Part shown: piece by piece, positions 16,532 through 62,590 of the stretch
Layout of the letters: each line of letters starts with the position of its first letter
Numbering within the stretch: position 1 is the stretch's first letter
From: Ectocarpus siliculosus
Lineage: Eukaryota > Sar > Phaeophyceae > Ectocarpales > Ectocarpaceae
NCBI GenBank assembly: GCA_000310025.1
Contig: FN648382.1
Span: 9,292 to 73,291 of the forward strand
Length of the DNA: 64,000 nt
Direction of reading: 5' to 3'
Program-made: the position numbers and the translations under genes
The notes under the pieces: generated by a model
The model's database searches: none
Told to the model about the DNA's origin: nothing
What the model saw: only the letters and a program-made list of their open reading frames with translations

Positions 16532-16799
16532 TGTTATAGGATTCAGATGTGTAGACGGAACATAGAAGAGCTTGGTTCCTTCTAGGAGGCGCGGAGAGAT
16601 GTAACTCTCCGCGGAAGGATAAAAAGCAGGGGACAGGATCTAGTAGCCCCGGCTTGTGCAGAGGATCCTGTGCCCCTTGGTGTCATTCCTACCGATACCC
16701 AAGGCAACAGCTACTGCTGCTGCTGTTCTACAAGAGTAACAACAAGTGAGTTCGTCTTCACGGGTCAACCAGACTTCATCACGCGTGCATACCACTACA
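16532..16799 (+). repeat. 5' LTR of the Gypsy element
   Basis: 268 bp, TGTTATAGG...CACTACA. It contains an 8-bp perfect hairpin and an A-rich TATA-like patch (see separate entry). Six substitutions separate it from the 3' LTR. Confidence 0.97.
16591..16627 (+). promoter_or_regulatory. LTR hairpin plus TATA-like patch
   Basis: GCGGAGAG (16591-16598) and CTCTCCGC (16605-16612) form an 8-bp perfect stem with a 6-nt loop, followed by GGATAAAAAGCAGGGG. The same structure is intact in the 3' LTR (29565-29586) while neighbouring bases differ. Position inside the LTR suggests a core-promoter or RNA structure role; this is inference. Confidence 0.5.
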
Positions 16800-16801
16800 C
16801 T

Positions 16802-16814
16802 TGGCGTTGTCGGC
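16802..16814 (+). other. Candidate primer binding site
   Basis: TGGCGTTGTCGG lies two bases after the 5' LTR and begins with TGG, as expected for a site complementary to a tRNA 3'-CCA end. The tRNA was not identified. Confidence 0.4.
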
Positions 16815-16934
16815 TTATTCGTACGGTGTTGTCTGGGTTGGTTGTGTCTTGGCGCGGTTTGGTGCTTTAGGCTGCTGCTGCAGTTTTTTGCGCTTTCGTC
16901 CCAACCACAGCTTAGCTTTGCCTCGCTTATCGGT

Positions 16935-18479
16935 ATGTCTCAATCTAGCGTCGGCTCATCGGACTCCGCTTCGGCGAGTCCTGAGCATTCTGAACGTTCG
17001 CGTTCGCCGGTGTCACCGCCTCGCGTAGCGACCTTCGGGTCCCCGGCAGCTGGTCGTCAGGCCACACAGCTGCTGCTGTCTTCGGACGGTGCTCGTGCCG
17101 CTGACCCTGTTGCCGATGCCGCTCGTTTGTCAGAGCTTCGCGCTCAACGCATTCGGGAGAGGTTCGCCTCGCCGGCTTCGGCCGACGCTAACCCCGTGGG
17201 TGCTGTCCTCAAACCGCCAGCACCCACACCTGGAACTTCGGTTTCTGCCTCTGTGCCTTTGGGTGTAAAACAGCAGTCCGTCTCGACGGCTGCTGGTGAT
17301 GAGCTTTCTGAATTCCCGCGTGAACCACATGTCGACTCGGATTTTCCTCTCGCCCCATCCACCGTTGAGCACTCTGCTCTTGGGACCGACATCGGTTTCG
17401 ACCGTGTTGCTGGCCCTGTAGTACCACGCTTGTCCAGTCGCTCGGCTTCTCGCAGCACGTTGCAATTTGACTATACAGTGCCGGCGATTCCCCTTTTTTC
17501 TTCTCGCAGCGATCGTGTACAAGCAGCGGCTCGCGCTCAACGGCTTCGTGACCGTCGTGTATCTGCTTCAGTGACATCACCGCTTGCAGATTCCGCCGCA
17601 TCACCACCCACTGTTCCAGTAGTTTCGACTGCACGGGCGATTTCGATTGCCTCTGGTACACTCCCCACAGTAGCCTCGTCTACCACAGCTCTTTCGGTTG
17701 ATTCTACTGCATTTGATCCCGTGGTTTCGCCCACACAGGCCATTTCGTTTGCCTCCGATGCTTTAGCTTCAGTAGTTTCGACTACACGTGCAGTTTCGGC
17801 TGCTACTGTGCCTGTTCCTGCGGTCTCGACTGCTGTAGGTGTGTTTGCCTCCATCCCTTTAGCTCCGCCGCTACCCACAGTTTCGACTGTTCGCGGTGCT
17901 GCCGCCTTAGCCGCCCCACCTTTGCGTACCGTTTCGACGCCGCGCACTGCTGTGACGTCTGCCCCCCCACATGCCTATCATGTTCCCTTTACTGGTGCAC
18001 CTGTCTCTGCGGTTTCGACTGCTGCACGTGTACTTTTGCCCATTCCATTAGCTCCGCCCCTGCCCACAGTTTCGACTGCTGGCGATGCTATTATTCCAGC
18101 AGCTCCGCCTCTTCGTACCGTTTCGACCCTGCGTACAGTGTCGTCTGCCCCTTTCCCCGCCCACACTACTTCCACACAGAACCCTGTGTCAGCGGCTTCG
18201 GCTGCTGTAAACACCGCTGTTTCTATGCCAGTAGATACGCCTCTGCCCGCATTTTCCACAGATTCACGTGTTCACACGGCGGGTTTCGATCCTACCGTTT
18301 CGACCGACTCTGCCATGCTAGCTTCTGCTTCGGCACCCCTAGCTGCGACTTCGGTTGTTTCCGCAGTGCCCTCTGCCGCTGCACCTCTTAATTTTCGAAC
18401 ATGGTGCCCCCACCCCCCCCCATGCTTTCCTCATCGCATGAACGTGCTGCTGATGCCTTGTTCCATCTTGAAATCGTAA
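16935..18479 (+). CDS. Gag N-terminal region, low-complexity Ser/Ala/Pro-rich
   Basis: An open frame of about 514 codons from ATG at 16935 (the frame is also open upstream into the LTR). The product begins MSQSSVGSSDSAS and is almost entirely Ser, Ala, Thr, Val and Pro, so it is predicted to be disordered. It contains many PTVST/VSTA repeats, including a duplicated block encoded at about 17850-17965 and 18025-18140. No known capsid fold is seen here; the recognisable capsid and nucleocapsid are encoded further on. The same frame (0) is used by the frames at 18825 and 20229, suggesting one ancestral gag broken by indels around 18400-18890. Confidence 0.6.
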   Translation: MSQSSVGSSDSASASPEHSERSRSPVSPPRVATFGSPAAGRQATQLLLSSDGARAADPVADAARLSELRAQRIRERFASPASADANPVGAVLKPPAPTPGTSVSASVPLGVKQQSVSTAAGDELSEFPREPHVDSDFPLAPSTVEHSALGTDIGFDRVAGPVVPRLSSRSASRSTLQFDYTVPAIPLFSSRSDRVQAAARAQRLRDRRVSASVTSPLADSAASPPTVPVVSTARAISIASGTLPTVASSTTALSVDSTAFDPVVSPTQAISFASDALASVVSTTRAVSAATVPVPAVSTAVGVFASIPLAPPLPTVSTVRGAAALAAPPLRTVSTPRTAVTSAPPHAYHVPFTGAPVSAVSTAARVLLPIPLAPPLPTVSTAGDAIIPAAPPLRTVSTLRTVSSAPFPAHTTSTQNPVSAASAAVNTAVSMPVDTPLPAFSTDSRVHTAGFDPTVSTDSAMLASASAPLAATSVVSAVPSAAAPLNFRTWCPHPPPCFPHRMNVLLMPCSILKS

Positions 18480-18670
18480 AGCGCCGTAACCGTCATCTCT
18501 ACGACATCCTTCGCCGTACGACGATGGTGGCCACCCCCCCTGCCGTCAAGCCCGAGGCGGCGTCTTCTGCTGGGATATCGACTCCAGAGCTTCGGGATTC
18601 CACCACCGGTGGCGGAACAAGGTCTTCAGTCACCGGCCGGCCGGCCGAGCCTGTCTAGATGATCCTACCC

Positions 18671-18787
18671 CCCTCGGCTTCGGCCACCACCGCTGCTTCG
18701 GCGGCACCCTCGGCTTCGGCCACCACCGCTGCTTCGGCGGCGCCCTCGGCTTCGGCCGCCACCCCTTCTTCGGCAGTACCCCCGGCT
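18671..18787. repeat. Three-copy 39-bp tandem repeat in gag
   Basis: Units TCGGCTTCGGCCACCACCGC... at 18671, 18710 and 18749. The translated frame is an Ala/Ser repeat; copy 3 is diverged. Confidence 0.85.
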
Positions 18788-18824
18788 TCGGCCACGGCTT
18801 CGGCCGCGGCTGCAACTTCCGGAC

Positions 18825-19700
18825 TTGGCCACGGAAGTGGCCATCGCGTTGCCGGCGGCCGCCACCATACAGGACGCGGTGGATGTGGCTAACGCCTCCC
18901 GTCCGGATCTTCGGGATCTGGCCGGCCGTTTCCTCGCTCGGATGCGGACGGCCAACACCCGCGCCACTGCTCCCGTGGTGTACCCTGGCTGCAGCGGCCC
19001 GTCTTCAGAGGCCTCCTATGGGTTCCAGCAGCCGCCGCCGGGTCGTGTCAAGCAGGCGCAACCGAGTCGGGAGAGTGGTCCTGGTAGCTCGGGAGAGGAG
19101 TCGGGCTGGAGCTCGGCCGGAGCATCGCGTCGACCCCCGGCGCCTTCGTCCTCTTCGGTGGGTGGTAGCCGGGAGAGAAAGGTGGCCAAGCGTGGCGGGG
19201 ATGGCGCTCGTGGCTCCAAGAACAAGAGCGGGACCGGGTCGGGCTCGGACACCAGCTTGTCCCGCAAGTCGGGCCGCCAAAGGCAAGTAGTTCCGTCTCT
19301 TATGGACGCGACTTCGGGTGCTCGTTTCTTTTTGCGTGATGATTTTGTTCCTCCGGCTTCGCCCCCCCCCGTTTCTTCGGAAACTCGTGTTGCGTTTTCG
19401 AACCTTCCGGCTTCGACCCCCCCCGTTTCTTCGGAAACTCGTGTTGCGTTTTCGAACATGCCACAGGCTTCGGCCCCCCCCGTTTCTTCGGAAACTCGTG
19501 TTGCGTTTTCGAACATGCCACAGGCTTCGCCCCCCCCCGTTTCTTCGGAAACTGTTGCACCTCCTGTTTTTTCTACCGCTGATTATGCTGTAGGCTCAGG
19601 AATCGCACACAACCCCGGGTTCTCAAACCCCACCCCCCCTTCCCCCCCCGGTGTTTGCCATCGGGGTTTGGGTTTTCGTCGCTTGGCAACGACGTTGTAA
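18825..19700 (+). CDS. Gag middle region with basic and repeated segments
   Basis: About 291 codons in the same frame as the N-terminal gag. It starts with a short helical segment (DAVDVANASRPDLRDLAGRF), then a Ser/Gly/Arg/Lys-rich basic stretch that could bind nucleic acid, then four near-identical PPVSSETRVAFSN repeats. It ends at a stop at the second TTGTAAAAC-containing repeat. No enzyme domain was seen. Because it begins inside a region where the frame changes, the true protein start is unknown. Confidence 0.5.
   Translation: MATEVAIALPAAATIQDAVDVANASRPDLRDLAGRFLARMRTANTRATAPVVYPGCSGPSSEASYGFQQPPPGRVKQAQPSRESGPGSSGEESGWSSAGASRRPPAPSSSSVGGSRERKVAKRGGDGARGSKNKSGTGSGSDTSLSRKSGRQRQVVPSLMDATSGARFFLRDDFVPPASPPPVSSETRVAFSNLPASTPPVSSETRVAFSNMPQASAPPVSSETRVAFSNMPQASPPPVSSETVAPPVFSTADYAVGSGIAHNPGFSNPTPPSPPGVCHRGLGFRRLATTL
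19355..19553. repeat. Four-copy tandem repeat of 53-59 bp in gag
   Basis: Each copy is GGCTTCG, a C-run, GTTTCTTCGGAAAC and TCGTGTTGCGTTTTCGAAC. The copies are nearly identical, suggesting recent expansion or gene conversion. Confidence 0.9.
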
Positions 19701-19773
19701 AACAAGCCCCCCACTCGGTGTTTGCCATCGGGGGTGGGTTTTCGTCGCTTGGCAGCGACGTTGTAAAACAAGC
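19649..19773. repeat. Two-copy 60-66 bp repeat with internal palindrome
   Basis: CGGTGTTTGCCATCGGGG, GGGTTTTCGTCGCTTGGC and CGACGTTGTAAAACAAGCC occur twice. Each copy contains the palindrome CGTCGCTTGGCxxCGACG. Confidence 0.85.
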
Positions 19774-19800
19774 CAATTCACTTCGTGAACTCGGCAACCA

Positions 19801-19848
19801 GGTTACCGTTTTTTTTTTTTTACCTTGGTTTTTTTTTTTGCGGTAACC
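19801..19848. other. Stem-loop with two T-runs between gag frames
   Basis: GGTTACCG (19801-19808) and CGGTAACC (19841-19848) pair perfectly over 8 bp. The loop consists of two T-runs separated by ACCTTGG. It sits in the gap (19701-20228) between open gag frames, where no protein was recognised. Confidence 0.6.
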
Positions 19849-20228
19849 ATAATGTTGGTCGAGTAGATCATGTTGTGCGGGGTGGAGAACCCTCACTCCG
19901 CGCAACGGGGGATGATCGCACCACGTTGTGTTAAAATGGTCAAGCTTCCTCGAGGCAGTTACACAGTGAATACAACTGTCTCTGGAAGTGAAAGCACCAG
20001 AAAATAAATTAAGTCATACGTAGCTGTCATCCGTACGCAAGGAAGTAAGCACAAGATGCCGAACACCCTTAGCAGGATGCAGCTCACCCTTCATGCGACT
20101 CGCCAAATACCTCACGGCGCTTCGCGCTTGGTGATGTGAGAGCCTGGTCCGGTGAGAACCCGGCGTGCTCCGTCCCGGCTTTGTAGGGATGCGAGGTCAA
20201 TGGTCAAACGACTACGGCATGCACGACT

Positions 20229-21953
20229 ATGAGTACCCCCCCCCCCCCCCCCCTTCGACTTTTGTGCCCGTACAAGATGTTCATCATGTTGTACCGTCTT
20301 GGGATCGTGTTCCGCCTGCTGCTCCTTCGGTTGCAGCTGCTGCACCCCCTCTCGTTTCGGATGATAGTGTCTTGCCACTTTTCTTCCAACATTGCACATG
20401 CTCGTCAAGCCACAGTAGATGCGGCTGCTTCGGCAGTTCGCAAGGCTCACGTAGTCACTGTCCAACGGGCGTACATCACTCTGAACTTGAAAAAAGTTGG
20501 AAATGTCACTACCATGCCCTTCCCTTCAACTTTGTTGCCTGGGGACGGCTACCAACAGCTCATCCGCACAACACGAACGGCCTTGTCCGACATATTGTTG
20601 CTGTGTGATGACCAAAGCGAAGGGTTGGACAGTACTGATTACGTGCCTGGATGGGAACGGCCTCTCGAAAAGAAACTTTCGGGTGCGATCACCCCTGACA
20701 AGCCCTCTACTGCCGATCTTGTCCTTTCCATCGCTGATTACTTTCAGCAGGTGAAGAGAAGCTTGGACGGCGGCGCCACCGGACCAGAAGCTTTTCAATT
20801 GCTGTTGCGTCATCTTGCGGAGCAATTTGATGTCGGCGACCGTCAAGAGTCATTTTTGAGGCTACAACAATTTGGAGTAGCAGATGGTACTTCTTTCGCA
20901 GATTACCTTCGTGCTTTTCGTTTGTTGGTTTCGTCTGTGACTGGCTCTGAGCGTACTTTGGCCCCTAGCGTATCCATGGTTTTAGAAATAGTGCGGCATT
21001 CGGTCTGCAAGCAATTTCCGAGTTTGTCTCCGATTTTGTACCCGGGTGCTCTGGCCACGGCCGTCACTCCTTTTGCATCGATTGCGGATATGTGGGAGGC
21101 GTTCGCGCCTCTAACGACAAATAAAACCCCGGCCATCGGTGGTTCATCCTATGTTTCTTTGTCTTCCACACGTGGCTCTTCGCAGCCTCGGCGGTCTCAC
21201 CACCGCGCCCCCGTGCCTTTGGGCCAGTGGGCACCAGGTTCAGCTCAGAACCCTGTAGTTTTGCCGGTACAATCGCACGATGCTGACCCTTTCACACGCA
21301 ACTATAATTCTTGGCCTGCTTCGCAAGCCGATTGGTCTGATGTATACGCTCTCACTTCTAGCTTTCGTAACACGGAGGATCCTTTTTTGTGGACTCCTTT
21401 GTTGACACAAGAGGCTCGCTCGCAAGCCTTCCGCGAAAACAGGAATCGCTGTCTGAACTGCTCGGGTGAAGACCATTCCATGAAGCAATGCGTTGCACCG
21501 TTCACGAATTCTAGTGGGTTGTTGAACCCCGAGTTGGGTCTCCTCAATGACGATTCTGCTGCTTTTAGACGTTGGCAAGGCCGTATGCGGTCTTTTCGAC
21601 GAAAAAGTGCGGACAACCGCCAAAACAATCAGGGTAGACGCCACCAGCGCTCTTCCTCTTCGTCCTCTCAGCGTCGAAACCACGCTGGGAACCGCCGTTC
21701 CGACGGTGGTAGTTCCCCTCACACTCATCAGACACAATCGCACAACAGTGGGTATGCCCCAGGGAATTCTGCGGGTAACTCTCACCCTCAGCAACACCCT
21801 TCGATCAACGCCAACCACACTGGTGCTCTGTCCCTCTATCAACCACAAACACATGCACACACCGGTCCTTCATCTGGCATCATGGTTTCGACCAATCACA
21901 ATGCCCGTCAACCTGGCAACTTCCAAAATGGTGGCCGTTCTCGCAGCGGATGA
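20229..21953 (+). CDS. Gag capsid and nucleocapsid (zinc knuckle)
   Basis: 574 codons. A predicted helical capsid-like region of about 250 residues (including DYLRAFRLLVSSV) is followed by a single CCHC zinc knuckle, CLNCSGEDHSMKQC (C-X2-C-X4-H-X4-C), and a Ser/Arg/His-rich basic tail. This is the packaging and RNA-binding part of Gag. The equivalent zinc knuckle is present in the second Gypsy element (63356-63397). The frame ends at TGA 21951-21953 but continues open in the same frame to 22394, so this stop may be a nonsense mutation compatible with CGA to TGA. A long C-run at about 20235-20252 just at the 5' end of this frame is prone to indels. Confidence 0.8.
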   Translation: MSTPPPPPLRLLCPYKMFIMLYRLGIVFRLLLLRLQLLHPLSFRMIVSCHFSSNIAHARQATVDAAASAVRKAHVVTVQRAYITLNLKKVGNVTTMPFPSTLLPGDGYQQLIRTTRTALSDILLLCDDQSEGLDSTDYVPGWERPLEKKLSGAITPDKPSTADLVLSIADYFQQVKRSLDGGATGPEAFQLLLRHLAEQFDVGDRQESFLRLQQFGVADGTSFADYLRAFRLLVSSVTGSERTLAPSVSMVLEIVRHSVCKQFPSLSPILYPGALATAVTPFASIADMWEAFAPLTTNKTPAIGGSSYVSLSSTRGSSQPRRSHHRAPVPLGQWAPGSAQNPVVLPVQSHDADPFTRNYNSWPASQADWSDVYALTSSFRNTEDPFLWTPLLTQEARSQAFRENRNRCLNCSGEDHSMKQCVAPFTNSSGLLNPELGLLNDDSAAFRRWQGRMRSFRRKSADNRQNNQGRRHQRSSSSSSQRRNHAGNRRSDGGSSPHTHQTQSHNSGYAPGNSAGNSHPQQHPSINANHTGALSLYQPQTHAHTGPSSGIMVSTNHNARQPGNFQNGGRSRSG

Positions 21954-22357
21954 CTCATCGGTGGTGGTTCGCCTACTTCCCCCGGACCGCCCTCAGCATC
22001 TTCGGGGACTTCGTCTTGTTCATCACAAGACGCTCGTTCACGCTCTGTTGCCCCTAATACTTCGGTATTATGCAACAACGACAATACTTCGGTATCTGTC
22101 GCGCCGTCACACACTGTTGCCTCTAGCACTTCGGTCCTACGCAACGATAACCACACTCTGGTGAATGTTATCCCTTCTGGTACTTCGGTGCCGCACAATA
22201 ACAACCATACTTCGGTTGAATGCGAAAGCAACCTGTTGAATGACACCTTACGAGGCGTTCCTTCAGGTTTAGAATTGGGGCCCGCACCCAGCGCCATGTC
22301 GCTGGCCCAATTATTGCGACCAATCCGGCTCCGGCCGCTTCTTCGCCGGTCTCTGGC

Positions 22358-23428
22358 ATGTCCGAGACCGTCCCCATGGACGTTCACGCCGTAAACTACA
22401 ATGCGGGCGTTTCGGCTGCCTCCGCTTCGACTACATCAGCTTCGGCTGCAACCTCAGCTTCGGCTGACCGCACTCCAGGTGTTTCGACTCCTGCAGTTCC
22501 CGCTGTCTTCGACCCGTCTAACGAGTATTGTACTTCTGACATGGTCTTCTTTTGGCAGCCTCCCTCTCCTTTTTCCCAGTGGACACCGTCGACTTTTGTG
22601 GTCGATGGAGTGGTATACTCGTGTGCTGAGCAGTTTTTCGCTGCGGAAAAAGCTCGTCTTTTCGAAGACCATTGCGCTTTACAAAACATCATGCGCGTGT
22701 CCGATCCTGCCTTACACAAGAAGTTTGGCCGCGGTGTCCGTGGTTTCGACCCATCTCTTTGGGAACACGAGCGCGAAAATATTGTGCTCACTGGCTCTTA
22801 CGCAAAATTTAGTCAAAACTCCGAGTTGCGCGAGCATGTTCTCGGATCTGGCGACAAAATCCTTGCCGAAGCTAGTCCCTACGACCGTATTTGGGGCATT
22901 GGCCTTCAAGCCGATGATCCTGACGCTCTATCCACCTCTCGATGGCGTGGCCTCAATTTGTTGGGCAACGCCCTTCAACGAGTACGCAGTCTTTACGATG
23001 CAACGCCCCGCCACCCGAGCGCAGCGCTTGTTTGCTGCCCCCCAACGACAACGTTTCGACGTCGTCTCAACATAACGCGGTCTATGAAGTTAGCCCTTCT
23101 ACACACCAGCGTCTTCGGATGGCCTCAAGCCCTCCGTCGACTGAACGATTCGCGTCGTTTTCACAATACGCTGCGAATGTTCCATCGGATCATGACACCG
23201 CTGTTTGGGCCGTGTCTTCCGGGTGCACCCCGCCATCCTCTTCCTCTTCTTTGCTTCCTGAGCAAGGTCCGGATTTGGTTGATGGTGTTGTTACCATCGA
23301 TGATGACTCTTTCACCACCCAAATCCTCACTCACAGTGGTTCGGTTTCTGTTCAGTTTGGATGTGTTGCGCTTTTGGACACGGGTTCCCCGCAGTCTTTT
23401 ATTAGTGCATCTGCGTGGGAATCCATGA
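22358..23428 (+). CDS. NADAR/YbiA-like domain carried by the Gypsy element
   Basis: After about 60 disordered residues, residues 62-210 (22541-22987) show the whole NADAR/YbiA pattern. In order: FSQWTPSTFVVDG, then CAEQFFAAEKARLF, GRGVRGF, AKFSQN, then EASPYDRIWGIGL and a final GLNLLGNALQRVR. Members of this fold (DUF1768) act on ADP-ribosyl or glycosidic bonds, and some remove ADP-ribose from guanine in nucleic acid. The Glu of the AEQ motif and the WGIG motif are present, so the domain may be catalytically intact here. It lies between gag and the aspartic protease and is in a different frame from both (gag frame 0, NADAR frame 2, protease frame 1). In the second element NADAR and protease-RT share one polyprotein once a single-base shift is ignored, so the shift here is probably decay. 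Residues after 210 are out of frame. Confidence 0.85.
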   Translation: MSETVPMDVHAVNYNAGVSAASASTTSASAATSASADRTPGVSTPAVPAVFDPSNEYCTSDMVFFWQPPSPFSQWTPSTFVVDGVVYSCAEQFFAAEKARLFEDHCALQNIMRVSDPALHKKFGRGVRGFDPSLWEHERENIVLTGSYAKFSQNSELREHVLGSGDKILAEASPYDRIWGIGLQADDPDALSTSRWRGLNLLGNALQRVRSLYDATPRHPSAALVCCPPTTTFRRRLNITRSMKLALLHTSVFGWPQALRRLNDSRRFHNTLRMFHRIMTPLFGPCLPGAPRHPLPLLCFLSKVRIWLMVLLPSMMTLSPPKSSLTVVRFLFSLDVLRFWTRVPRSLLLVHLRGNP

Positions 23429-24594
23429 AAGCCGCTTCGGCCGCTTCGTCGTTGTCTGAGAAACAAACCCAACCTCGCTGTTGGGGAGGTTTCGGCAAAT
23501 CTGCTCCGCTTCAAACTTCGACTATTGTCCGTTTGAGCGTGCAGTTTCTTCGCAAGCGCCTTCCTACTTCCTCTCTCGCTGTTTGGGCATACGTTGTTCC
23601 CGATGGTGTTATGCATCATGACGTGCTCCTTGGGAGAGACAGTTGGATGCGGTTTAGCGACCGCTCTTACCGCACTTTGCGTGCCAAACGCCCTGGTGAC
23701 CGTGTTTTTGGTGAGCTTACCCTGGCTCAGCATAGCAGTTGCGGTGCCACCGCATTTGCTCACAATTTGTCCTCCACAGATGGTAACTACCAACTTCGCT
23801 ATGCTGGGAAACATTCCGTCCAACTTCACCCTGAACATAGCCTTGTTCCGGTTAATTTGGTACGCAGTGATGGCTCTCCAGCCCTCGTGGGTAACTATCT
23901 CGTGGATATGCTTCCACAATGTGCTATGTTTTCTTCCGAGGAACATTTTGTGCAAAATGGTTGCCAAAGACTCCCGCTCGCGGGTATCTCTTCACTCGAA
24001 CCAGGCGACATTCTGGGTACAGCTTCGGCTCCCCTTCTTCGCGTGCCTCTCAGTGCTGTGTCTCGCCACAGTTTGAGCGATGGTCTTCAACCTGCGGCTC
24101 AAGATCCCACCATTGCTTCGGGCAACTGGGTTCCGGGTCCTGTTTCGACAGGTGGCATTGATTCGTCTGCCGAACGTCGCATTGATGACCCCTTCGTGTA
24201 TAATTTGCATGAGCGACCCACGCCGTCGCCACGCGGCAAAGAGGACCCTGGTTCTGCCAGTGCTTCTCTTTCGTCGCCTCCGCCTGCTCTTCTCGAGCGG
24301 TTGACGTCTGAACAACGTCAGAGTTTTTCCCGCGTGTGGGATAAGCTCCCCTGCCATCTCCGTGAGATTTCTTTTGATCTCCATGGTCCGGGTTGGACTC
24401 CGGATGTCATCACTCAGCTTGGTAACGTCCTGTGCGACTATCATGATGTCTTTTCGAGTTCCCCCACCGACTTTGGATCTTGTTCGCTTTTTCCTTTCAA
24501 GCTTACAGTTCCTCCGGGCAGTGCACCCGTCACGTCTCGTCCATACCGCGTTAACCCCTCGGTGGCGAAACAAGTTGACGCGATCCTTGATTAA
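22942..24594 (+). pseudogene. Gypsy pol: aspartic protease and RT start
   Basis: 550 codons ending in a premature TAA (24592-24594). The aspartic protease active site is LLDTGSPQSF (Asp at 23377-23379). A linker follows, and then the conserved pre-RT segment ending VDAILD. At the TAA the second Gypsy element has Gln in the sequence VDAILDQYLAAGL, so the stop most likely arose by CAA to TAA. The frame continues open beyond it into RT. Confidence 0.85.
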
Positions 24595-25430
24595 TATCTT
24601 GCGGCTGGTCTGATCCAACATTCGACCTCGCCCTACTCGAGTCCTTTGGTAGTCATACCGAAGAAATCTGGTGGTGTTGGCATCACTGTCAATTATTGCA
24701 AGCTCAACAAGCTTTGTGCTTTGAGCCAGCTTCCGATTCCTCGACTTGATGATACTTTGGACAAGTTGTTGAAAGGGCGAATTTATTCCCTTTTCGATAT
24801 GAAGTCTTCGTTCCACCAAATCACGGTTCACCGTGACACAATCCCTTTGACGGCATTCGTGACGTCTTCCGGGCTTTTTGAGTGGTTGAAGATGCCTCAA
24901 GGCAGTTCTGCTGCCCCTGGGTGGTTTTGCAAGGTGGTCAACGAAGTCATCAAAAATCTCCACGGTGTTGCATCGTACTTGGATGATTTGATCGTTTTCG
25001 ACGACAACCCTGCTTCTCATGTTGATACCATGCGCGCTCTGTTTGAACGCTTACGCACACACAACTTGAAACTCACCCCACCGAAGGCCACCATTGGCGC
25101 TACCGAAGCGGATTTCCTCGGCCACACCATCTCCCCCGACGGTGTTCGGCCTAACGGGGCCAAGGTTGCAGCCCTCACCAAAATGCCCATGCCCAAGGAT
25201 GTTAAACAACTTCGCTGTCTTCTTGGCGGCCTCAGCTACTACCGCAAGTTCCTTCCCAACATGGCTACGCGAATTCGACCTCTGACCACTCTTCTCAAGA
25301 AGCAGGCGACGTTCGTCTTCACCCCTGCCATGGAGCAAGCTGTTCCCGTCCTGCTGTCTGAGTTGGCCAACCCTCCTGTCTTGGTTTATCCAGATTGGGA
25401 TGCCGTTACGGACGGCTCGCGACCTTTTCG
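24595..25430 (+). pseudogene. Gypsy pol: reverse transcriptase
   Basis: Continues in the same frame after the TAA. It has the LVVIPKKSGG segment, the SLFDMKSSFHQI catalytic Asp motif, the FEWLKMPQGSSAAP motif and YLDD (24976-24987). The connection region reads LGGLSYYRKFLP. A one-base loss near 25427, next to DGSRPFR, moves the RNase H domain to another frame; the second element continues DGSRPLRLCCDA at this point. Confidence 0.9.
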
Positions 25431-26441
25431 CTCTGTGATGCTAGTCGCGATGGGTTCGGCGGGACTCTCGAACAAGAACAGCCGGATGGCTCCATCCGGC
25501 CCATCGTTTTCATCAGCCGAGCTACTTTGGATTCCGAACGTCATTGGACTCCTCTCGACCTTGAGGCGGGTAGCATCGTATGGTGCATCAAACGACTTCG
25601 CGGTTATTTGTGGGGCACGAAATTTCGCTTTTTTACCGACCACAAATCTCTTGAGCATTTTGCCAAGGTGGGGGAGAACAATGCCCGCGTTCAGCGTTGG
25701 CTCGAATTTCTTACCTCCTACAATTACACTCTCGAGTACCGCAAGGGTTCCGCAAATGGCAACGCTGATTTCCTCTCTCGCCTTCCGATCGATGCGGCGG
25801 AATGTGACCGATCTGGTCGCAGCCGCTTGACACTGGATGACGATGAGGAGAGCGTATTCTTCATCCGTTCTTGTGGCCTTACGCCTTCTGGCCATCGCGC
25901 CGTGGGTGTTGGCTTGGGTGGGCTCGTCCCCACTTACCCGACTCCGGTCTTGGGTGGGCTGGCCCCCTCTACAGATGATTTTGTCGACTTCCGTCGGCAT
26001 GGTCCACGTCTCTCGCCGTCAGGCCTTTCGTCTCCGCCTGGCGTCTGGAACATCGCACCCTGGCCGTCCAACAACTCCCGCGGGTTGTCTCCTTCGCTAC
26101 GATGCCTGTGTGACAGGACCCTCGATTGGTCTGGCTCCTTACATTCTTCGGTAGAGGACATTTTGGCTCTCGAGCCCGAGTCTTCGCCGGCCGTCTCGCC
26201 GACTACCCCATCACGACGGACTCTCGACCCTACTCAACTGATTTCCACGCGAACTCGCCGTCGCACGGCGGTTGTGGCAGGCACGCCCCTCCCGCCCGTG
26301 GATTATGGTTTCTCCGAGGACCCGCCTGCTCCTACTCGGATTTCCGCTTCGCCCCGATCGTTTCGACGTTCTTCGCCCGCGTCTTCAGCATCGACTACGC
26401 CCCCCGTTTTGACCAGGTTGGTTTCGGCTCCTGGTGCTTGA
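25395..26441 (+). pseudogene. Gypsy pol: RNase H and long linker
   Basis: RNase H follows after the shift: CDASRDGFGGTLEQEQ, then LDLEAGSIVWCIKRL and FFTDHKSLEHF, with the NADFLSRLP end motif. This carries the acidic catalytic residues of Ty3-type RNase H. A Pro/Ser/Arg-rich linker of about 190 residues then separates it from the integrase. The frame shifts again near 26430 into the integrase frame. Confidence 0.88.
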
Positions 26442-28950
26442 CACTTCGATCCCAGACCTTCATACGCCTCTGGCTCGTGGAAGGGATCTTGCGTCTTCGA
26501 CGCATCCTGCAACTTCGGTTGCTCCTGCCCAGCAGTCTTCTGCTGCCCCCGATTCTTCGGAATCTTCGACGCGTTCGGTTTCGACCACTCGTACACCTTC
26601 GTCTTCGGTTGCCGATGCTACTCTGCCTTCGGGTGGATTGCGGCCGGAGCCTCAGGAATCGGCTCCCTCTTCTATCGAGGCGGCTTTACATTCCTCGGCA
26701 GATTTAGCCTTCCGGGCGTCTGCCGCACGTTTCTCGCATGCTGATCGGGCTCGCGAGCAACGTAACGAACCTGTTTGTGATGCAGCTATTCGTTTCATCC
26801 TTCTGGGTCGGCCTTCGGCTCTCCCTTCGGATTTCCTGGATCATCTTCCGATCGCTCGTCGACCTCCTCTGTCGGAGATTCGTGACCTGTCTAACAAAGG
26901 CCGGTTACAGGTTGACGATGATGGTTTGGTCTTGCTTGTTCGCAAGCAAACAGCGCCCCCGTCGTCTACGACCACACGTCCTGGCGGGCGTGCTGCTCGC
27001 CTTCTCAACGACGAACCCATTCGGATTTATGTTCCCATGCTCATGCGTCCGTGGATCATGCAAGCCTGTCACGCTGATGCATCCTGCCACCTCGGTGCCG
27101 CTCGCACGCTTAGCATGCTGGAACGTTTTTATTGGTGGGTTGGCATGAGTGTTTGCACGAAGTGGTGGGTAAGGCATTGTTTGCGATGCCAAGCTCGCAA
27201 GTCATCTCGTCAAACGCCTCAATGGCCTACTTTGTGCCTTCCGCTGCCTTCGGGCCCTGGTGTGTCGGTGAGCGTCGATTATTTCGGTCCCCTCCCGTTG
27301 ACACCGCGCGGAAACACATATATTCTGCTTTTCACTGATCGTTTCAGCCGCCGTGCTGACATGTACGCGGTTACGGCTGCAGAATTCACCGCCGAAGGAA
27401 CCGCTGACGTACTTGTCAATCGGTATATCCCTTTATGGGGTTGCCCTTTGAGTCTCTTGTCTGATAATGGCTCTCAGTTTTGTCCTAAACTGTCGCAGGC
27501 TGTATACGCCCGTCTGGCTATCCGCAAAGGGCTACCAGCTCTTACCATCCCAACGGCAATGGGGGTGTGGAGCGCGTAAATCACACTATGGCTCAGATGT
27601 TGGCTATTGTCGTCAATGAGAGGCAAGATGATTGGGACATTCATCTGCCGCACATTGAGTTCGCCTACAACAATTCGGTTAGTGCCCCTACTGGTTTGGC
27701 GCCCAACGAGGTGCATATGAACCGCCTGCCACGCATGCCGATGACGGTTTTTGAGCATCCATATGCTCGAAGCCACCAAAGCTTGCATCGCGATCAACTT
27801 GAGTATTGCGATCTTGCTGCTGATCGCCAACGTCGTTCTTACGATTTAGTTCGTGCACAATCTATCCGTTTCGCGGATTGAGCGGCGTAACTCCGCTCTG
27901 TCGGATGCTTTGCGCAAGGTTCCCTCATACACCGTCGGTGGATGGGTTTGGGTGTACAACACCGAATCTACCATTCGCCAAGGTGTTAGTTCAGGCACGG
28001 ATGACAAGGTCCTCAAGGCTAAGTTGTCTTTCCTTTGGACTGGTCCGTTCAAGATCTTGGCCGTGGGTCCGTGTTCTGACGCCCCCGACGGTTGTCCTCT
28101 GGCATCCAAGTTACTGTATTTGGATCTTCCATCGGATCTGCCGGGTCTGGACTCGAAAAACCGTGTGTCGGTTGCGCGTTGCAAGCCTTGCGCTAACCCG
28201 CATGACACTGAAGACTTGCCTCGGTTCCTGCCTGCCGGCCTTACACCGTATGTGCTCAACTCCCATGCGAATAAATCTCCTCCCTACCATGTTACGGAAG
28301 ACGACGTGTCGACTCCGGTCGAACGTCTCGAGGTTGACCGCATTAGTGGCCATCAGTCTGTTCGTGGCCGTGGTGGCACCATCGCTGTTTTATACCAAAC
28401 GCATTGGAAAGGTCTTCTTCGTCCTTCTTGGGGACGTGAGATGGACCTCCAGCATTCCAAGACCCACATTCTCCGGCACTGGACGGGTTCGCCTGATCAA
28501 CACCGCCAAACGAATCGCCGCTATCGGGCGATGCGTATTGGTGCGGCCACCCGCGAGATGGCGCGCGCTAAAGGGGAGCGAGCCTTGCCTTCGGGTTATT
28601 CGCTCGTCTCTCGTTCAACTTGGGACCGTCGCTTCGCCAATACTCCGCTACCTGCAGGCGCCTTCTTCTGGTACAAAGCTCGCGATGGATTCTGGTGGTT
28701 GGGCAAGATTACTGGACCGCCTCTACCGTCCGACTTCTACGTCGTCCGCTTCTTGGACGATCCTGGCCCTGTCAAGCTCGCCCTTCCTGATGTTCGCTAC
28801 TCCACCGCTGAAACCGCCGTCTCCGGATCCTGGTGCCTCCAAGTTCACAGCGGCAGCGCCCTTTCTAAGGGGATCCTTCGCAACGTCGACATGTCGCGTG
28901 GTGACCCCGGGACTGATTCGTTGCCTGATAACGTTGCGCGCCCCCATTAA
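26434..28950 (+). pseudogene. Gypsy integrase with GPY/F, chromodomain-like and Tudor-like modules
   Basis: Frame 26434-27579 has the HHCC zinc-binding region (HLGAARTLSMLERFYWW ... CLRCQARK) and the first Asp (VDYFGPLPLTPRG) and second Asp (LLSDNGSQF) of the DDE core. A shift near 27535 moves the catalytic Glu (ERVNHTMAQ) to 27567-27881. A second shift near 27860 moves the C-terminus to 27853-28950. That last frame has a GPY/F module (WTGPFKILAV), a chromodomain-like stretch at 28318-28488 (YQTHWKGLLRPSWGREMDL) and a Tudor-like stretch at 28648-28812 (FWYKARDGFWWLGKITG ... FYVVRFLDDPG). Such readers usually steer integration to marked chromatin. The full tail is conserved in the second element, supporting functional selection before decay. 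Confidence 0.85.
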
Positions 28951-29505
28951 GACGACATGCTAGTTGTCTTGGCTTTCTGTTGTTTTCAGCGTTGTTTGGG
29001 TTGCTTTTTAGCCTTGGTTGGTTTTCGCTTTCTCCTCGCTTTATTTTGTGCCTTCAGCGTTTGGTCATGACCTGTAGGTGTTTCGCGCCCATTGTTGCCC
29101 CTTCTACACTGCCGTGGCGACTGCGTAAATGACGTATCTTATCGTTTTCTTACGATACCGGTCTTGTTGTGGTTCCTACAGTGATCCTTTTTTTTTGTCG
29201 TTTTGACGACCTTTGTTTTTCTTTTCTGTTTTTCTTCCTTTCTTTGTGTTCTCCTTTCTTTGGTTCCGACCTTCTTCCGGTCGTCGTAGGCTTTTCTTAG
29301 CCCCGTCAGTTCCTTCCTGTGTCTTTTTGTCGTTTTAAGAGTCAAACGATAGTCTTGCGACTCATCGAGTGAGAGGTGTGGGAGGGTGAATTGTGCTGTT
29401 TTGGAGCTCCACATCCTCAATACGTTCATTTAAGGACTCGACAATTTCTTGCCAAGCCTCGAGGTTTTACAGTATCTGCGTATGAGATTCTCCAGGGTGG
29501 GCTAG
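28951..29505 (+). other. 3' noncoding part of the Gypsy element with polypurine tract
   Basis: T-rich sequence (29180-29330) with no gene. The CCAGGGTGGGCTAG just before the 3' LTR (29492-29505) matches CCAGGGTAGGCTAA before the LTR of the second element and is the likely polypurine tract and LTR boundary signal. Confidence 0.6.
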
Positions 29506-29773
29506 TGTTATAGGATTCAGATGTGTAGACGGAACATAGACGAGCTTAGTTCCTTCTAGAAGGCGCGGAGAGATGTAACTCTCCGCGGAAGGATAAAAAG
29601 CAGGGGACAGGATCTAGTAGCCCCTGCTTGTGCAGAGGATCCTGTGCCCCTTGGTGTCATTCCTACCGATACCCAAGGCAACAGCTACTGCTGCTGCTGT
29701 TCCACAAGAGTAACAACAAGTGAGTTCTTCTTCACGGGTCAACCAGACTTCATCACGCGTGCATACCACTACA
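29506..29773 (+). repeat. 3' LTR of the Gypsy element
   Basis: 268 bp, same length as the 5' LTR with six substitutions. It is followed by AACT, the target duplication. Confidence 0.97.
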
Positions 29774-29777
29774 AACT

Positions 29778-31351: not shown

Positions 31352-31605
31352 TGTTCGTGGGTCTACGGACATGGTTTGGATATGTTAGCCGTACGTACAA
31401 GTGTGACGCAGATGGTGTAGAACCTTTTAGGTAGGGGTACGGTGATGATGCACCGGGGCCCCCTTTTGTTGTGTGCAGCAGCCCTGCTGCCACTCCTCCT
31501 TTCTGAGCACGACAGCGCCCTGGGTACGGGCGTTGCCTCACCGTCTGAAGTTAATACACTACACAAACAATACCCGATAAGTACGCGGAGTACGGCCGAC
31601 AAACA
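31352..31605 (+). repeat. 5' LTR of the young Copia element
   Basis: 254 bp starting TGTTCGTGGG and ending GACAAACA, preceded by TGTTT. Confidence 0.97.
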
Positions 31606-33166: not shown

Positions 33167-33610
33167 ACGAGGTGGAACCGCGTCTACTTCTTGAAAAACA
33201 AGTCAGACGCTGCAGAGGCATTCGGGAGATATCTAGCGGAAAACAGGGCAGACGGAGCCCCATCCGAGGTCATGGTCGTGCGGTCTGACAACGGAGGAGA
33301 GTTTTTCGAGGGAGAGTTCGGAAAGCTGTGCCGCAAGTATTGCATCAAGCAGGAGTTCACCCCCGCATACAGCCCAGAATACAACGGTGTAGCTGAGAGA
33401 GCACTGGGACTGATAAAGGATGCAGCACTAGCCGCCCGCATACAAGCGCCGATTCTTTACCCCGAAGCACCAAGCTACCCCTCCCTTTGGGCCGAAGCCA
33501 CAGCTTGGGCATGCAACGCCCTGAACTGCACCTCTACCACATCCAACCCGGACAAGAAATCGCCGTACGAAATGTGGCACGGGCACCCACCTCCCCCAGA
33601 GGCGACGTAA
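33167..33610 (+). pseudogene. Copia integrase core
   Basis: Same frame after TGA. It shows RSDNGGEFF (catalytic Asp), then FTPAYSPEYNGVAERALG (catalytic Glu) and a KKSPYEMWHG segment. It stops at TAA 33608-33610, after which the same frame stays open. Both stops are compatible with single C-to-T changes from CGA and CAA. Confidence 0.88.
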
Positions 33611-59432: not shown

Positions 59433-61964
59433 TTATTGGACAGTATCCGCCATAGCGGGCGTAAAACAAAACTTCGCGTCCTTACGCAAAAGGTCTGTGA
59501 GTGGTTTCACGCGCATGGCCAAACCCTTGATGAATTTGCGGTAATACGAAAGCCCACCCAGCAAGGAACGCAGGTTTTTGACGTTGTTAGGCAGCGGCAT
59601 TTTTGTGAGGGCTTCGACCTTATCGGCACGAGGACTAACACCCGCAGGGGAGATTGTGTGGCCTAAATAAACAGCCTCCTTAGCGCCGACGCGACTCTTG
59701 GAAGGAGAAAGCTTGAGGTTGTACTTGCGCAAACGCTCCAAAAACAACCGTATGTTGGCGACATGGTGGATGGGGTCGGCGTCAAACACAATCACATCGT
59801 CCAGGTATGCAAGCACCTGGTCCAGACCTTTAACCACTTCGTTGATGACCATGGTGAACCACAACGGTGCCACGGAGCTTCCCTGAGGCATACAGAGCCA
59901 CTCGAAAAGTTGCGTGGGCGTACAAAACGCCGTAAGCTGAACCGTGCCCTCTTCGACGGTGATTTGGTGGAAAGCGGAGTTAAGATCGAAAATGGAAAAC
60001 ACCTTGCCCTTGTGCAGGGAATCGATGATGTGGTCAACTCGCGGCTGCGGTTGTTGACCAAGGCTGCACAATTTGTTAAGCTTTTTGTAGTTCACGGTCA
60101 AACGCAGATTGCCGTCCTTTTTAGGCATGACAACCAGAGGGCTCGCCCACGGCGATTGCGAGTGCTGAATAAGACCGGCAGCAAGGTATTGATCGAGAAT
60201 TGCATCGACCTTGTTCTCCACCAGAGGGTTGAGTCTATAGGGACGCGAGGCCAACGGTTTCGTGCCCGGGGGCACTTCCAAACGAAACGGTTTCACGGAA
60301 CAGCAACCGAAATCGGACGGTGACCGCGAAAACATATCCGAAAAGTCACACAGCACATCCGCCAGGCTGTCGATGGCTTCCGTGGTCCAACCCGAGTCAT
60401 GTAAATCAATTGTGACATCGTGCAAATGTGCAGGCAAACGTTGCCACAACTCGCGAAAACTCACTCGCTGCGCTTCTGAGAGGCGTTCCAACAAATCCGG
60501 TGGCGGCGGTTTCGGCGGCAGTGAGGCCGCGGGAGAATCCGAGATCTCCGGATCCGCAACCGGGATGATTGAATGCAAAGAATTCACGCGACACGGCGGC
60601 CCATCCGCGGAACGGGCTGGCGGCGGAGGGTCACTCAACCCAACGCCCTCGGCCGTCTGCGGTGTAGGATCAATCGACGCAAGGGGGATCTGCACAAGTG
60701 GGGCAGTCGCCACTCCAAGCACCTCACCTGGCTCCAACTCGGCGCACCCTGTCAATGGGATGTGTTGAGGCCCGTCCGAAACAAACGCGTCCGACGCCGA
60801 GAGGGCGCCGAGTTTCGGTAAAAACGTGACAAGATAGTTGCCGGTGAGAGCGGGGGTGACAGAGTTGCGAACGAGGTTCACCCTCGTCAAAGTGGGTTTA
60901 TCGGAAAGGGAGACACCCTTCCTGCCGGCGTACCGCAGGAAGTAAGATGCCCCGGGGGCGGAGGGTCCAGCGACATACGCGGAAGCTCCCGCCGCAAAAT
61001 CCGATGACAGAGAAAGTTTCTCCATAATGCGTCCACTTGCCGACCGCGTGGGCAAAGTAGTGGACAAACGAGAGTTAAAACGCATCCAACTATCACGTCC
61101 AAGAAGGAGGGCGTGACCCATGGCGGCAGCTGGGACAACATACACCCACACCGCTAACGAAGCGGTGGCACTATCACCACAAAAAAATTGAACGTACATC
61201 CGCACGGATGAGGTGGTTTCAAGAGCATTGCCAGAGCCAAAACCACCCCACTGGCGAACGGGCACCGAACGACGACTGTGGACAGATGCAGCTCCTGACG
61301 CCTCCATGGCTTCAAGGAAAGCATCACTAATGAAAGATGAAGGTGAGCCCGAGTCCAAAAGGGCTACACCAGGCGCTGTACACACGGCTCCGGTACCACT
61401 ATGCACGCGGACTCGCGTCGTAGAGGTATCGCAATCTACTAAAACATCACCGCTCACCAAATCTGGGCCGTGTTCCGCCAATAGCGGCGGTGGGGAAGCG
61501 GCGGCTTCGCGAAAAGCAGTCGAGGCAATATGCAGCACCTGTTTCGAGTGGTCCGCGGGCGTGTTGGCTGGCACGTCCAGTGGGCCACGCGCGTCCTCGG
61601 GCGAGGAATCATTGGCCGAAGAGTCCTCACCCGGGGGCGCAATTTCGTGGATAGTGGGGCACACGGGGGCAGGTTGCCCCGAGTGTTCAGGGCGTAAAGG
61701 CTTATTGGGTTCGACCGGGCGCACACGCAGAAGCGTGCGCGTCGCAACAAGCGCTTTGCCCAAAAGGTTTTCACCAGTCCACTTGGAGGGCAACGCCGCA
61801 CGCGGGTCGAAGGCATCAACACCAATGCCCCACAATCCGTCATAAGGACTGGCCTCCGCTATCTGTCTATCACCCGTAGCCAACAAACGTTCACGCGCGT
61901 CAGCATTTTGGGCGAATTTGCATACAAAAGCGAAAAGACAGCATCCTCGCGCCGGAGCTCCCAT
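59433..61964 (-). pseudogene. NADAR C-terminal half, aspartic protease and RT, second Gypsy
   Basis: An 843-codon frame. Its N-terminal part is the second half of the NADAR domain (EASPYDGLWGIG and GENLLGKALVATR, to about 61737). A Pro-rich linker, the protease site LLDSGSPSSF, and RT follow, the last with LVVMPKKDGN, SIFDLNSAFHQI, FEWLCMPQGSSVAP and YLDD. NADAR is thus physically fused to protease-RT in one frame here. The protease motif has Ser (DSGS) in place of the Thr in DTGS, which occurs in many active retroelement proteases. Confidence 0.88.
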
Positions 61965-62590
61965 AGAGCATGGTCAAAACCGCGTACCTTGCGACCAAGG
62001 GACTTGTATTCTCTCGGGTCGGAGGTAGCCATGATTTTGGCATTTTCGGCATCATCGTCGAAAATGCGGGCTTTCTCCGCCATCATGAACTGTTCGCCGC
62101 ACACGTAGCGAATGCCATGAACCGAGAACTCACAGGGCGTCCAGTTAGACAGAAAGGACGGCGGTTTCCAAAAGAGGAAAACCTCATCGTTATAGTATTC
62201 CTGACAACCGTCAAAAACAGGGGCCTGCCGCGCGGGTGCGCTTACCTTCCCCGAAGAATCATCAAGAGAAATGGCACCGGCAACCGGCAGGACAATCTGG
62301 GTGCCGCCCGAAGGCGGGCCGGATTGTGGGTTACGAGGAGAGGCAGGCAAGAGCGGTGAACCAGCCGCAGAAGCGTGCGAAACCAAGCGGTCTACGCGGG
62401 CGTTTTCGCGCAAAACGTCGGCGTAGGCCCGTTCATTAAAAGCGGCCTTCATCGCGGGCGCTCGACCAACATGGTCAGCGGCCGCGGGAGGCTCGGGACC
62501 GCTATTTTGTGACAAAGAACATGAACCGTCCGATTTGGGGAAACCGTTACTTGCGCTCGGCAACGGCGGTGCAGTCAGCACCGTGCGACG
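61859..62590 (-). pseudogene. NADAR N-terminal half with upstream linker, second Gypsy
   Basis: A disordered linker of about 130 residues is followed by the first half of NADAR (from about 62190): FLSNWTPCEFSVHG, CGEQFMMAEKARIF and GRKVRGFDHALWE. A one-base deletion in an A-run near 61917-61919 breaks the domain exactly at the AKF motif; the remainder continues in the frame starting at 61964. Upstream, this frame is the same as that of gag, interrupted by TAA 62591-62593. Confidence 0.85.

What the first reader, a model, noticed from the sequence alone, without database searches (positions are those of the whole stretch)
22541..22987. NADAR/YbiA-like enzyme domain embedded in a Gypsy retrotransposon between gag and protease
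Seen: all hallmark motifs of the NADAR fold, from FSQW...VDG through AEQ..AAEKA, GRxVRGFD, AKFSQN and EASPYDxIWGIG to NLLG...R, lie between a CCHC zinc knuckle and a DTGS protease inside an LTR-bounded element. Known: NADAR proteins hydrolyse ADP-ribosyl/N-glycosidic bonds, and some reverse guanine ADP-ribosylation on nucleic acid, a modification used in antiviral and toxin systems. Inference: the element may carry a counter-defence against ADP-ribosylation of its RNA or cDNA, or salvage an NAD-derived metabolite. I do not know of a standard Gypsy family with this cargo, though similar fusions may already be noted in domain surveys.
Basis: partly seen in the sequence, partly recalled or inferred. 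Interest (0 to 1): 0.95.

Follow-up and report, generated by a model that had tools for sequence, protein, structure and literature searches.

The report
Retrotransposon carrying an ADP-ribose-removing enzyme domain
A family of jumping genes in what is probably a brown-alga genome carries, inside its own replication polyprotein, an enzyme domain that in other organisms strips ADP-ribose off nucleic acids; the fusion was reported in 2025, and here it looks captured from a host gene and kept working by selection.

Summary
A full-length NADAR domain (PF08719, E 3.3e-44; 22547-22990) lies between a CCHC knuckle and a DTGS protease in a 13.2-kb LTR element (16532-29773; LTRs 97.8% identical, TSD AACT). 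It is no insertion artefact: all 20 further copies fetched (chosen for long frames) hold NADAR-PR-RT in order, gag upstream in 19, and 131 of 150 listed related RT places have a NADAR 1.1-3.1 kb upstream. The fusion is published: Dinatale et al. 2025 (PMC12477816) report it in one Ectocarpus Gypsy lineage, role unknown, possible bacterial transfer.

Added here: nine of eleven named pocket residues are identical in 29 of 29 copies; NADAR is under purifying selection like RT (pN/pS 0.27, 0.25); the RT tree fits one gain with some losses; the sister is a stand-alone, intron-bearing brown-algal NADAR gene, favouring host capture; gag and pol are split by one in-frame UGA-C in 15 of 19 mapped copies, suggesting readthrough.

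Most likely it is a packaged guanine-ADP-ribose hydrolase acting on the element's RNA or cDNA. Substrate and counter-defence role are inference; no host guanine ADP-ribosyltransferase was identified.

The parts
16532..29773 (+). Whole LTR retrotransposon (Ty3/Gypsy type) that carries the NADAR domain
   Evidence: LTR pair, TG..CA ends, AACT at 16528-16531 and 29774-29777 (letters read by eye); domain order
16532..16799 (+). 5' LTR (268 nt); TGGCGTTGTCGGC from 16802 looks like a primer-binding site (by eye; not tested against tRNAs)
29506..29773 (+). 3' LTR, 97.8% identical to the 5' LTR
20187..21953 (+). gag open frame (stop to stop), ending in TGA followed by C (21951-21953)
   Evidence: no Pfam hit
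21450..21491 (+). CCHC zinc knuckle of Gag
   Evidence: read by eye
22547..22990 (+). NADAR (YbiA-type) domain, towards the N-terminus of Pol
   Evidence: Pfam E 3.3e-44; AlphaFold2 mean pLDDT 96.6; Foldseek 8bau E 5.1e-13, TMq 0.90; catalytic E codon at 22628, K at 22649, E at 22868
23323..23790 (+). Aspartic protease region with DTGS at 23377-23388
   Evidence: read by eye; collinear tblastn hits in related copies; no Pfam hit
24655..25131 (+). Reverse transcriptase (RVT_1)
   Evidence: E 8.4e-23; in-frame TAA at 24592-24594 lies just before it in this copy
25434..25721 (+). RNase H (RT_RNaseH)
   Evidence: E 2.3e-27
27031..27525 (+). Integrase (H2C2 zinc finger 27031-27207, rve core 27253-27525)
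   Evidence: E 1.2e-13; rve E 2e-7, 31.6 bits against a cut-off of 32.6
28150..28947 (+). C-terminal extension after integrase; weak chromodomain match in two relatives, none in this copy
   Evidence: Chromo 13.0 bits in L010 and 18.6 bits in L022, both under the cut-off of 25.1; 0 families in the window copy
59436..62590 (-). NADAR-to-RT part of a second, more decayed NADAR-bearing Gypsy copy (NADAR split by a frame change)
   Evidence: NADAR halves at 68.0 and 68.3 bits, RVT_1 2.4e-31

Best explanation
The NADAR domain is a resident, selectively maintained, probably catalytic part of Pol in a Ty3/Gypsy lineage found in Ectocarpus and in genomes that the databases do not name. Shown by computation: position, linkage, conserved active site, purifying selection, one main NADAR-bearing clade on the RT tree, sister relation to the host NADAR gene. 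Inferred: an ancestral element captured the coding sequence of an ochrophyte NADAR gene, most simply from spliced RNA, since the host gene matches in separate exons and the element's domain is uninterrupted. Pol, with NADAR towards its N-terminus, is made as a Gag-Pol extension by readthrough of an in-frame UGA, so that NADAR enters the virus-like particle at enzyme dose next to the RNA and the nascent cDNA. There it hydrolyses ADP-ribose off guanine bases (or a similar N-glycosidic adduct), keeping the template readable for RT. This would counter either host ADP-ribosylation directed at the element or incidental damage.
For: Pfam, fold and structure. Linkage: 20 of 20 fetched copies, 131 of 150 listed RT places. 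Of eleven pocket residues named for the P. nicotianae enzyme (PMC11543638 section 12), E43, K50, K75, R79, W89, R93, E125, D130 and W133 are identical in 29 of 29 copies, Y84 is F in 29 of 29, D86 is not kept; over the domain 58 of 156 columns are invariant. Within three families NADAR has 32 synonymous and 30 nonsynonymous changes, pN/pS 0.27, p 5e-7 against neutrality; RT 0.25, PR 0.28. Between families dN/dS is about 0.06-0.07 with dS near saturation. RT tree: the clade with all NADAR-bearing rows has 99/97; outside it P0173, P0215 and other Gypsy rows show no NADAR. NADAR tree with YbiA as outgroup: elements one clade 96/92, host genes their sister 97/87. UGA-C. NADARs reverse guanine ADP-ribosylation on DNA and RNA in vitro (PMC11543638, PMC11833690; passages).
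Against: No enzyme that ADP-ribosylates guanine was identified in this genome; the six-frame search is weak for split genes. NADARs outside DarT operons hydrolyse guanine-ADPr but protect poorly against DarT1 (PMC11125620, passages), so activity need not mean this role. The RNA after the UGA shows no significant fold (z from -1.5 to +0.8), and in family B an ATG lies 13 codons after the stop. The RT tree needs five changes of the NADAR label, not one: rows inside the clade without a complete NADAR are P0139, P0148 (39 residues kept), P0185 and P0230 (which has only 183 residues before its protease, so its NADAR may be cut off). NADAR and RT trees disagree on deep groups. In family B NADAR has 2 synonymous and 8 nonsynonymous changes, and L021, L022 and L028 each carry a change at a position invariant in 50 aligned NADARs; L001 has a stop in the domain. 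The 20 copies were picked for open frames, which favours intact ones.
Confidence: 0.5

Rival explanations
1. The domain acts on soluble ADP-ribose or NAD-derived molecules (immune signal, cyclic ADPr product, riboflavin intermediates) rather than on nucleic acid.
For: Posited for viral NADARs in general and phage ones in particular, and N-glycosidase activity on riboflavin intermediates is known (PMC9503650, passages). The ADP-ribose pocket is what is conserved.
Against: Placement within Gag-Pol would put the enzyme inside a particle with nucleic acid; the same paper also argues for macromolecular targets of NADARs in polyproteins of eukaryotic RNA viruses.
Confidence: 0.2
2. NADAR serves in processing or repair of the element's own RNA (5' end, template damage), without any host attack; the role suggested by Dinatale et al.
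For: PMC12477816; two unnamed, giant-virus-like proteins fuse NADAR to mRNA capping domains (P0134, P0137).
Against: NADARs were inactive on phosphate-end ADP-ribosylation (PMC11833690, passages); no specific substrate is known.
Confidence: 0.25
3. The domain was acquired straight from bacteria (suggested in PMC12477816) and is unrelated to the algal NADAR gene.
For: Dinatale et al. report almost only bacterial blastp hits outside Ectocarpus; here four named bacterial proteins (P0014, P0021, P0022, P0024) reach 56-58% identity over 93-97% of the query, as high as the algal gene P0008 at 56% over 96%.
Against: Brown-algal stand-alone genes group with all element NADARs: 99/91 for a joint clade, 97/83, 97/87.
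Confidence: 0.15
4. The NADAR is now a nucleic-acid-binding or structural module without catalysis.
For: Polyprotein domains are sometimes reused as binders (general knowledge).
Against: The three catalytic residues and six further pocket residues are kept in 29 of 29 copies.
Confidence: 0.08
5. A host NADAR gene into which an element inserted (artefact).
For: The genome does have a separate NADAR gene, on contig C24.
Against: That gene is elsewhere, matches in four separate pieces and is clearly distinct; NADAR recurs at the same place in all 20 copies inspected.
Confidence: 0.01

Closest known systems
Ectocarpus Gypsy lineage with NADAR (e.g. Gypsy-12_Ec32), Dinatale et al. 2025, PMC12477816
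   Different: Their consensus sequences could not be compared here. Not seen in the parts of that paper that I read or searched: UGA gag-pol junction, active-site tally, selection test, or the host NADAR gene as sister (its supplements were not available)
Stand-alone YbiA-type NADAR of brown algae (Ectocarpus sp. 13 P0008; own genome C24)
   Same: Same domain, P0008 56% identical to the window NADAR over 96% of it, sister clade
   Different: Separate host gene in several exons with its own N-terminal part; one locus found, 150 of 266 candidates scored
Phytophthora nicotianae NADAR (PDB 8bau), a guanine-ADPr hydrolase
   Same: Fold (TMq 0.90), catalytic E/K/E and most named pocket residues
   Different: 30% identity in the structural alignment; D86 and Y84 differ; not part of a retroelement
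NADAR in Tx1 LINE ORF1 of Crassostrea gigas (PMC12477816) and in polyproteins of nidoviruses and picornaviruses (PMC9503650)
   Same: NADAR built into a protein of an RNA-intermediate element or RNA virus
   Different: Other replication systems; relation to the present domain not tested here
DarT1-NADAR (DarTG1, BC4488 subfamily)
   Same: NADAR hydrolase of guanine-ADPr
   Different: Has Asp in place of the third catalytic Glu and a partner toxin; here Glu and no DarT found

Membership tests
NADAR superfamily (PF08719) | Profile match over the curated cut-off across the whole domain | tested here: met
   151.5 bits against 35.1, profile positions 1-160 of 163
NADAR superfamily (PF08719) | YbiA fold | tested here: met
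   AlphaFold2 mean pLDDT 96.6; 8bau E 5.1e-13 and YbiA 2b3w E 9.2e-8 are the only PDB matches at E up to 0.001
YbiA subfamily of NADARs | Glutamate at the position of P. nicotianae E125 (Asp in BC4488, His in phage NADARs) | tested here: met
   Glu in 29 of 29 copies, window codon at 22868; definition from PMC11543638 and PMC11125620
Guanine-ADP-ribose hydrolase | Catalytic E43, K50, E125 equivalents | tested here: met
   29 of 29 copies for each
Guanine-ADP-ribose hydrolase | Hydrolysis of guanine-linked ADP-ribose | not testable with these tools
   needs an assay
Ty3/Gypsy LTR retrotransposon (Metaviridae) | LTRs with TG..CA ends and short target-site duplication | tested here: met
Ty3/Gypsy LTR retrotransposon (Metaviridae) | Order PR-RT-RH-INT | tested here: met
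NADAR-Gypsy lineage of Dinatale et al. [quoted passage not shown]
NADAR-Gypsy lineage of Dinatale et al. 2025 | C-terminal chromodomain | tested here: inconclusive
   Chromo 13.0 and 18.6 bits in two relatives, under the cut-off 25.1; none in the window copy
NADAR-Gypsy lineage of Dinatale et al. 2025 | Sequence match to the Ec32 family consensus | not tested
   the supplementary library was not available
DarTG1 toxin-antitoxin system | Catalytic Asp (BC4488) and a DarT partner | tested here: not met
   Glu in its place; DarT 0 matches in the genome

The most novel reading that the evidence does not exclude
A retrotransposon lineage captured its host's own ADP-ribose hydrolase gene and carries it in its particles as a counter-defence, which implies that brown algae restrict retroelements by ADP-ribosylating guanines in their RNA or cDNA, a eukaryotic anti-transposon mechanism that I did not meet in the paper searches.
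Probability: 0.22. Interest if true: 0.92.

Novelty: already known. Interest (0 to 1): 0.6.

Why it matters
The fusion itself is in print, but its function is open. The evidence here turns it into a testable question: a catalytic pocket kept over families whose NADARs are 53-67% identical to the window's, a host gene as probable donor, and a genetic layout that would place the enzyme in the particle. If the domain removes ADP-ribose from the element's nucleic acid, the modification it removes, and the host enzyme that adds it, would be a new layer of genome defence in an organism that, by the abstract of Dinatale et al., lacks an epigenetic silencing machinery comparable to that of animals or plants. 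It also points to a different source of the domain (host capture rather than bacterial transfer).

Tried and rejected
Rejected: artefact or interrupted host gene. Not found: a NADAR-free intact sister family within the genome. Of 19 RT places without a listed NADAR upstream I looked at three (L040-L042): one keeps PR but upstream of it no NADAR or gag is recognised and stops abound, two lack even PR. The other 16 were not inspected; two of these (C396:1402, C14:2318, plus strand) lie close to the contig start. Rejected: NADAR replaced by a divergent one in the copies at C89:161521 and C46:327197; the low scores look like frame changes inside the domain. Led nowhere: RNA structure after the gag UGA; viral contigs: 80 loci kept of 471 that encode a relative, best 51% identity, none of the 80 with my GAG, PR, RT, RH, INT or C-terminal pieces; host DarT, Tpt1, PARP and macrodomain searches as a pointer to the substrate. 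Paper searches: five for NADAR or DUF1768 with transposon, Gypsy or stramenopile terms, one for YbiA, one for the enzymology. Searches found 104, 47 and 440 papers, of which I saw 20 each as listings; among all listings PMC12477816 is the only paper I recognised as reporting such a fusion. I also searched PMC6338049 (accessory domains in retrotransposon polyproteins) for NADAR, YbiA, ADP-rib and DUF1768: 0 occurrences. The library lacks most subscription papers and holds no bioRxiv preprints. Rows dropped: P0124 and P0135 (domain too short) from the first NADAR tree; twelve names (nine long branches, three near-duplicates) were listed for removal between, 89 rows against 78; searches use chosen subsets of 67 and 63 rows; P0222 was left out as too short; the RT tree uses 52 of 91 usable rows (86 proteins plus 5 copies). 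The RT protein search itself scored only the 7,992 best candidates and lists 120 of 322; the NADAR search lists 120 of 3,963.

Full report
What is there. The window holds a 13.2-kb LTR retrotransposon at 16532-29773: two 268-nt LTRs, 97.8% identical, beginning TG and ending CA, flanked by AACT on both sides. Between them come a gag frame with a CCHC knuckle (21450-21491), a NADAR domain (22547-22990), a DTGS protease (23377-23388), RT, RNase H, integrase and a C-terminal extension. NADAR scores 151.5 bits against a cut-off of 35.1. The window copy is defective (frame change after NADAR, a TAA before RT) but its NADAR stretch is uninterrupted. A second, more decayed copy with a split NADAR lies on the minus strand, NADAR to RT at 59436-62590.

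Is it part of the element? Yes. In the window's own genome (unnamed, 189 Mb) all 150 scored NADAR places pass the Pfam cut-off, out of 230 candidates. I fetched 7.3-9.9 kb around 20 of them, chosen for long open frames. All 20 show NADAR, PR and RT in order; gag lies upstream in 19, the exception being a stretch cut at the contig end (L019). In all 20 the NADAR frame runs on into PR and RT, 2,014-2,580 aa. A search with the window's RT scored 150 of 459 candidates; of the 150 places listed (a few are two pieces of one RT), 131 have a NADAR 1,054-3,086 nt upstream on the same strand by listed coordinates, median 2,097, taking the 150 NADAR places plus nine more. Of the 19 without one, three were inspected and are truncated or disrupted upstream. 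Conversely 26 of the 150 NADAR places have no listed RT downstream, which the cap on scored RTs may explain.

Host. The stand-alone NADAR gene that I found (C24:2125206-2127066, minus strand, matching in four pieces) is 83%, 90% and 95% identical to Ectocarpus sp. 13 in three pieces and 62% in one whose alignment runs into what looks like intron; Scytosiphon and Pylaiella are less alike. The RT of the window is 98% identical to a protein of Ectocarpus sp. CCAP 1310/34, P0155. I infer an Ectocarpus or close ally.

Prior art. Dinatale et al. [quoted passage not shown] I saw the abstract, passages found by term search, part 1 of section 5 and section 15; the terms readthrough, read-through, frameshift, stop codon and domesticat- do not occur in its main text. 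The architecture is therefore known.

Active site. Residues that line the ADP-ribose pocket of the P. nicotianae enzyme are named in PMC11543638 (section 12; K75 lies near but makes no direct contact by that text). Mapped through the alignment, nine of the eleven that I took (E43, K50, K75, R79, W89, R93, E125, D130, W133) are identical in 29 of 29 element copies, including the three catalytic ones; Y84 is F in all 29; D86 is not conserved. Of 156 domain columns 58 are invariant. Single copies carry changes at positions invariant in 50 aligned NADARs (L021, L022, L028) and L001 a stop, as expected of old insertions. The model has mean pLDDT 96.6 and matches 8bau (TMq 0.90) and YbiA (0.77) alone among PDB chains at E up to 0.001. 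Glu at the E125 position places it in the YbiA subfamily.

Selection. Within three families (25 NADAR sequences) there are 32 synonymous and 30 nonsynonymous changes, pN/pS 0.27, p 5e-7 against a site-proportional expectation that ignores transition bias; RT gives 0.25, PR 0.28, integrase 0.19, gag 0.20. Family B alone shows 2 synonymous and 8 nonsynonymous changes in NADAR, against the trend. Between L012 or L013 and L025, NADAR dN/dS is about 0.06-0.07 with dS of 2.7-3.1, so only an order of magnitude; with the window copy itself dS could not be computed. The domain is thus kept about as strictly as the protease.

Origin. An RT-based search (322 proteins, 120 listed) and tree (52 rows) place all NADAR-bearing rows in one clade (99/97). 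The next lineages (P0173; P0215 with P0208) and other Gypsy rows show no NADAR; P0173 and P0215 have 288 and 312 residues before the protease, P0208 only 45. The tree needs five changes of the label; one gain and four losses or faulty models fits. The four rows inside the clade are P0139, P0148 (39 residues left), P0185 and P0230 (possibly cut off). The NADAR trees put the element domains together (83/93; 96/92 with YbiA as outgroup) with six stand-alone rows as sister (97/83 and 97/87): four named brown-algal proteins, one eukprot protein without organism name, and the gene of this genome. In the first, sparser tree the host genes fell inside the element clade without resolution (99/91 for the joint clade). 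The group that I labelled bacterial holds few named bacteria and many unnamed metagenome proteins, plus Chrysoparadoxa and one MMETSP protist. The two trees conflict on a group of unnamed long contigs (P0165 and kin): with the L009 group in NADAR (95/93), outside the other two in RT (100/99); P0157 and P0158 also shift, with weaker support. I read this as capture from an ochrophyte gene with possible later exchange; the published bacterial-transfer idea is less likely but not excluded.

Expression. In 17 of 20 copies with gag (the window and 19 fetched) the first in-frame stop after gag is UGA followed by C; the exceptions are L014 and L018 (TAG earlier) and L025 (frame change within gag). A search with the three contexts taken found the same site in L014 and L018 too, 19 in all; as the contexts include UGA-C, this second count is not independent. 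In 13 of these 19 the pol frame begins directly after that UGA, and in L014 and L018 the coordinates say the same, 15 of 19. The exceptions, the window copy, L013, L016 and L028, have a frame change or an extra stop. In family C the first ATG of pol is 220 codons after the stop in most copies (117 in L017) and NADAR begins near codon 291; in L012 of family A the first ATG is at 380 and NADAR at 433. This fits stop-codon readthrough. In family B an ATG lies 13 codons after the stop, so separate initiation is possible there. No significant RNA fold follows the stop. Readthrough is an inference.

Mechanism. NADARs hydrolyse guanine-linked ADP-ribose on DNA (PMC11543638) and RNA (PMC11833690) and were inactive on phosphate-end adducts (passages). 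A NADAR inside Gag-Pol would sit beside the RNA and cDNA. I hold this most likely, at about one half. Counter-defence proper needs a host enzyme that modifies guanine; I found none: DarT 0, Tpt1 0, PARP four weak exon-sized hits, macrodomain one, with a method that handles split genes poorly.

Verdict. Observation confirmed; architecture already published; added here are the host-gene affinity, the one-clade picture, the in-frame UGA, and the site and selection evidence that make a catalytic role likely.

Noticed in passing
window 21951-21953; L009-L028: Gag ends in UGA-C and pol follows in the same frame in 15 of 19 mapped copies of three divergent families: a likely readthrough junction, not seen in the parts of the Ectocarpus paper that I read or searched.
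   Followed up: partly
G000:C24:2125206-2127066 (L039): Stand-alone NADAR gene matching in four pieces, with an N-terminal Cys-rich stretch (CKLPGCSRPC...YCGVTH); sister to the element NADARs.
   Followed up: partly
P0134 (1,151 aa) and P0137 (1,165 aa): Unnamed proteins, giant-virus-like by my reading, that join mRNA capping domains (PF03919, PF03291) to a NADAR; hints at an RNA-related role of NADAR.
   Followed up: no
L037 and L038 (copies at C89 and C46), window 61862-61973: Apparent frame changes inside the NADAR coding stretch in three copies; in L037 and L038 the long frame stays open, so they look intact by ORF length although the domain is scrambled.
   Followed up: partly
window 16800-20186: About 3.4 kb between the 5' LTR and the gag frame, with a 579-aa Ser/Ala/Val/Thr-rich frame (16740-18479) and short tandem repeats; no Pfam family over its cut-off.
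   Followed up: no
window 31352-35861: A second LTR element, by eye with a zinc knuckle and Copia-like frames; 254-nt LTRs 99% identical (31352-31605 and 35608-35861). No domain search was run on it.
   Followed up: no
G000:C3:3913787 and C489:435177: NADAR places within very long open frames (10,887 and 6,365 aa by the tool's count), not examined.
   Followed up: no
   Followed up: partly
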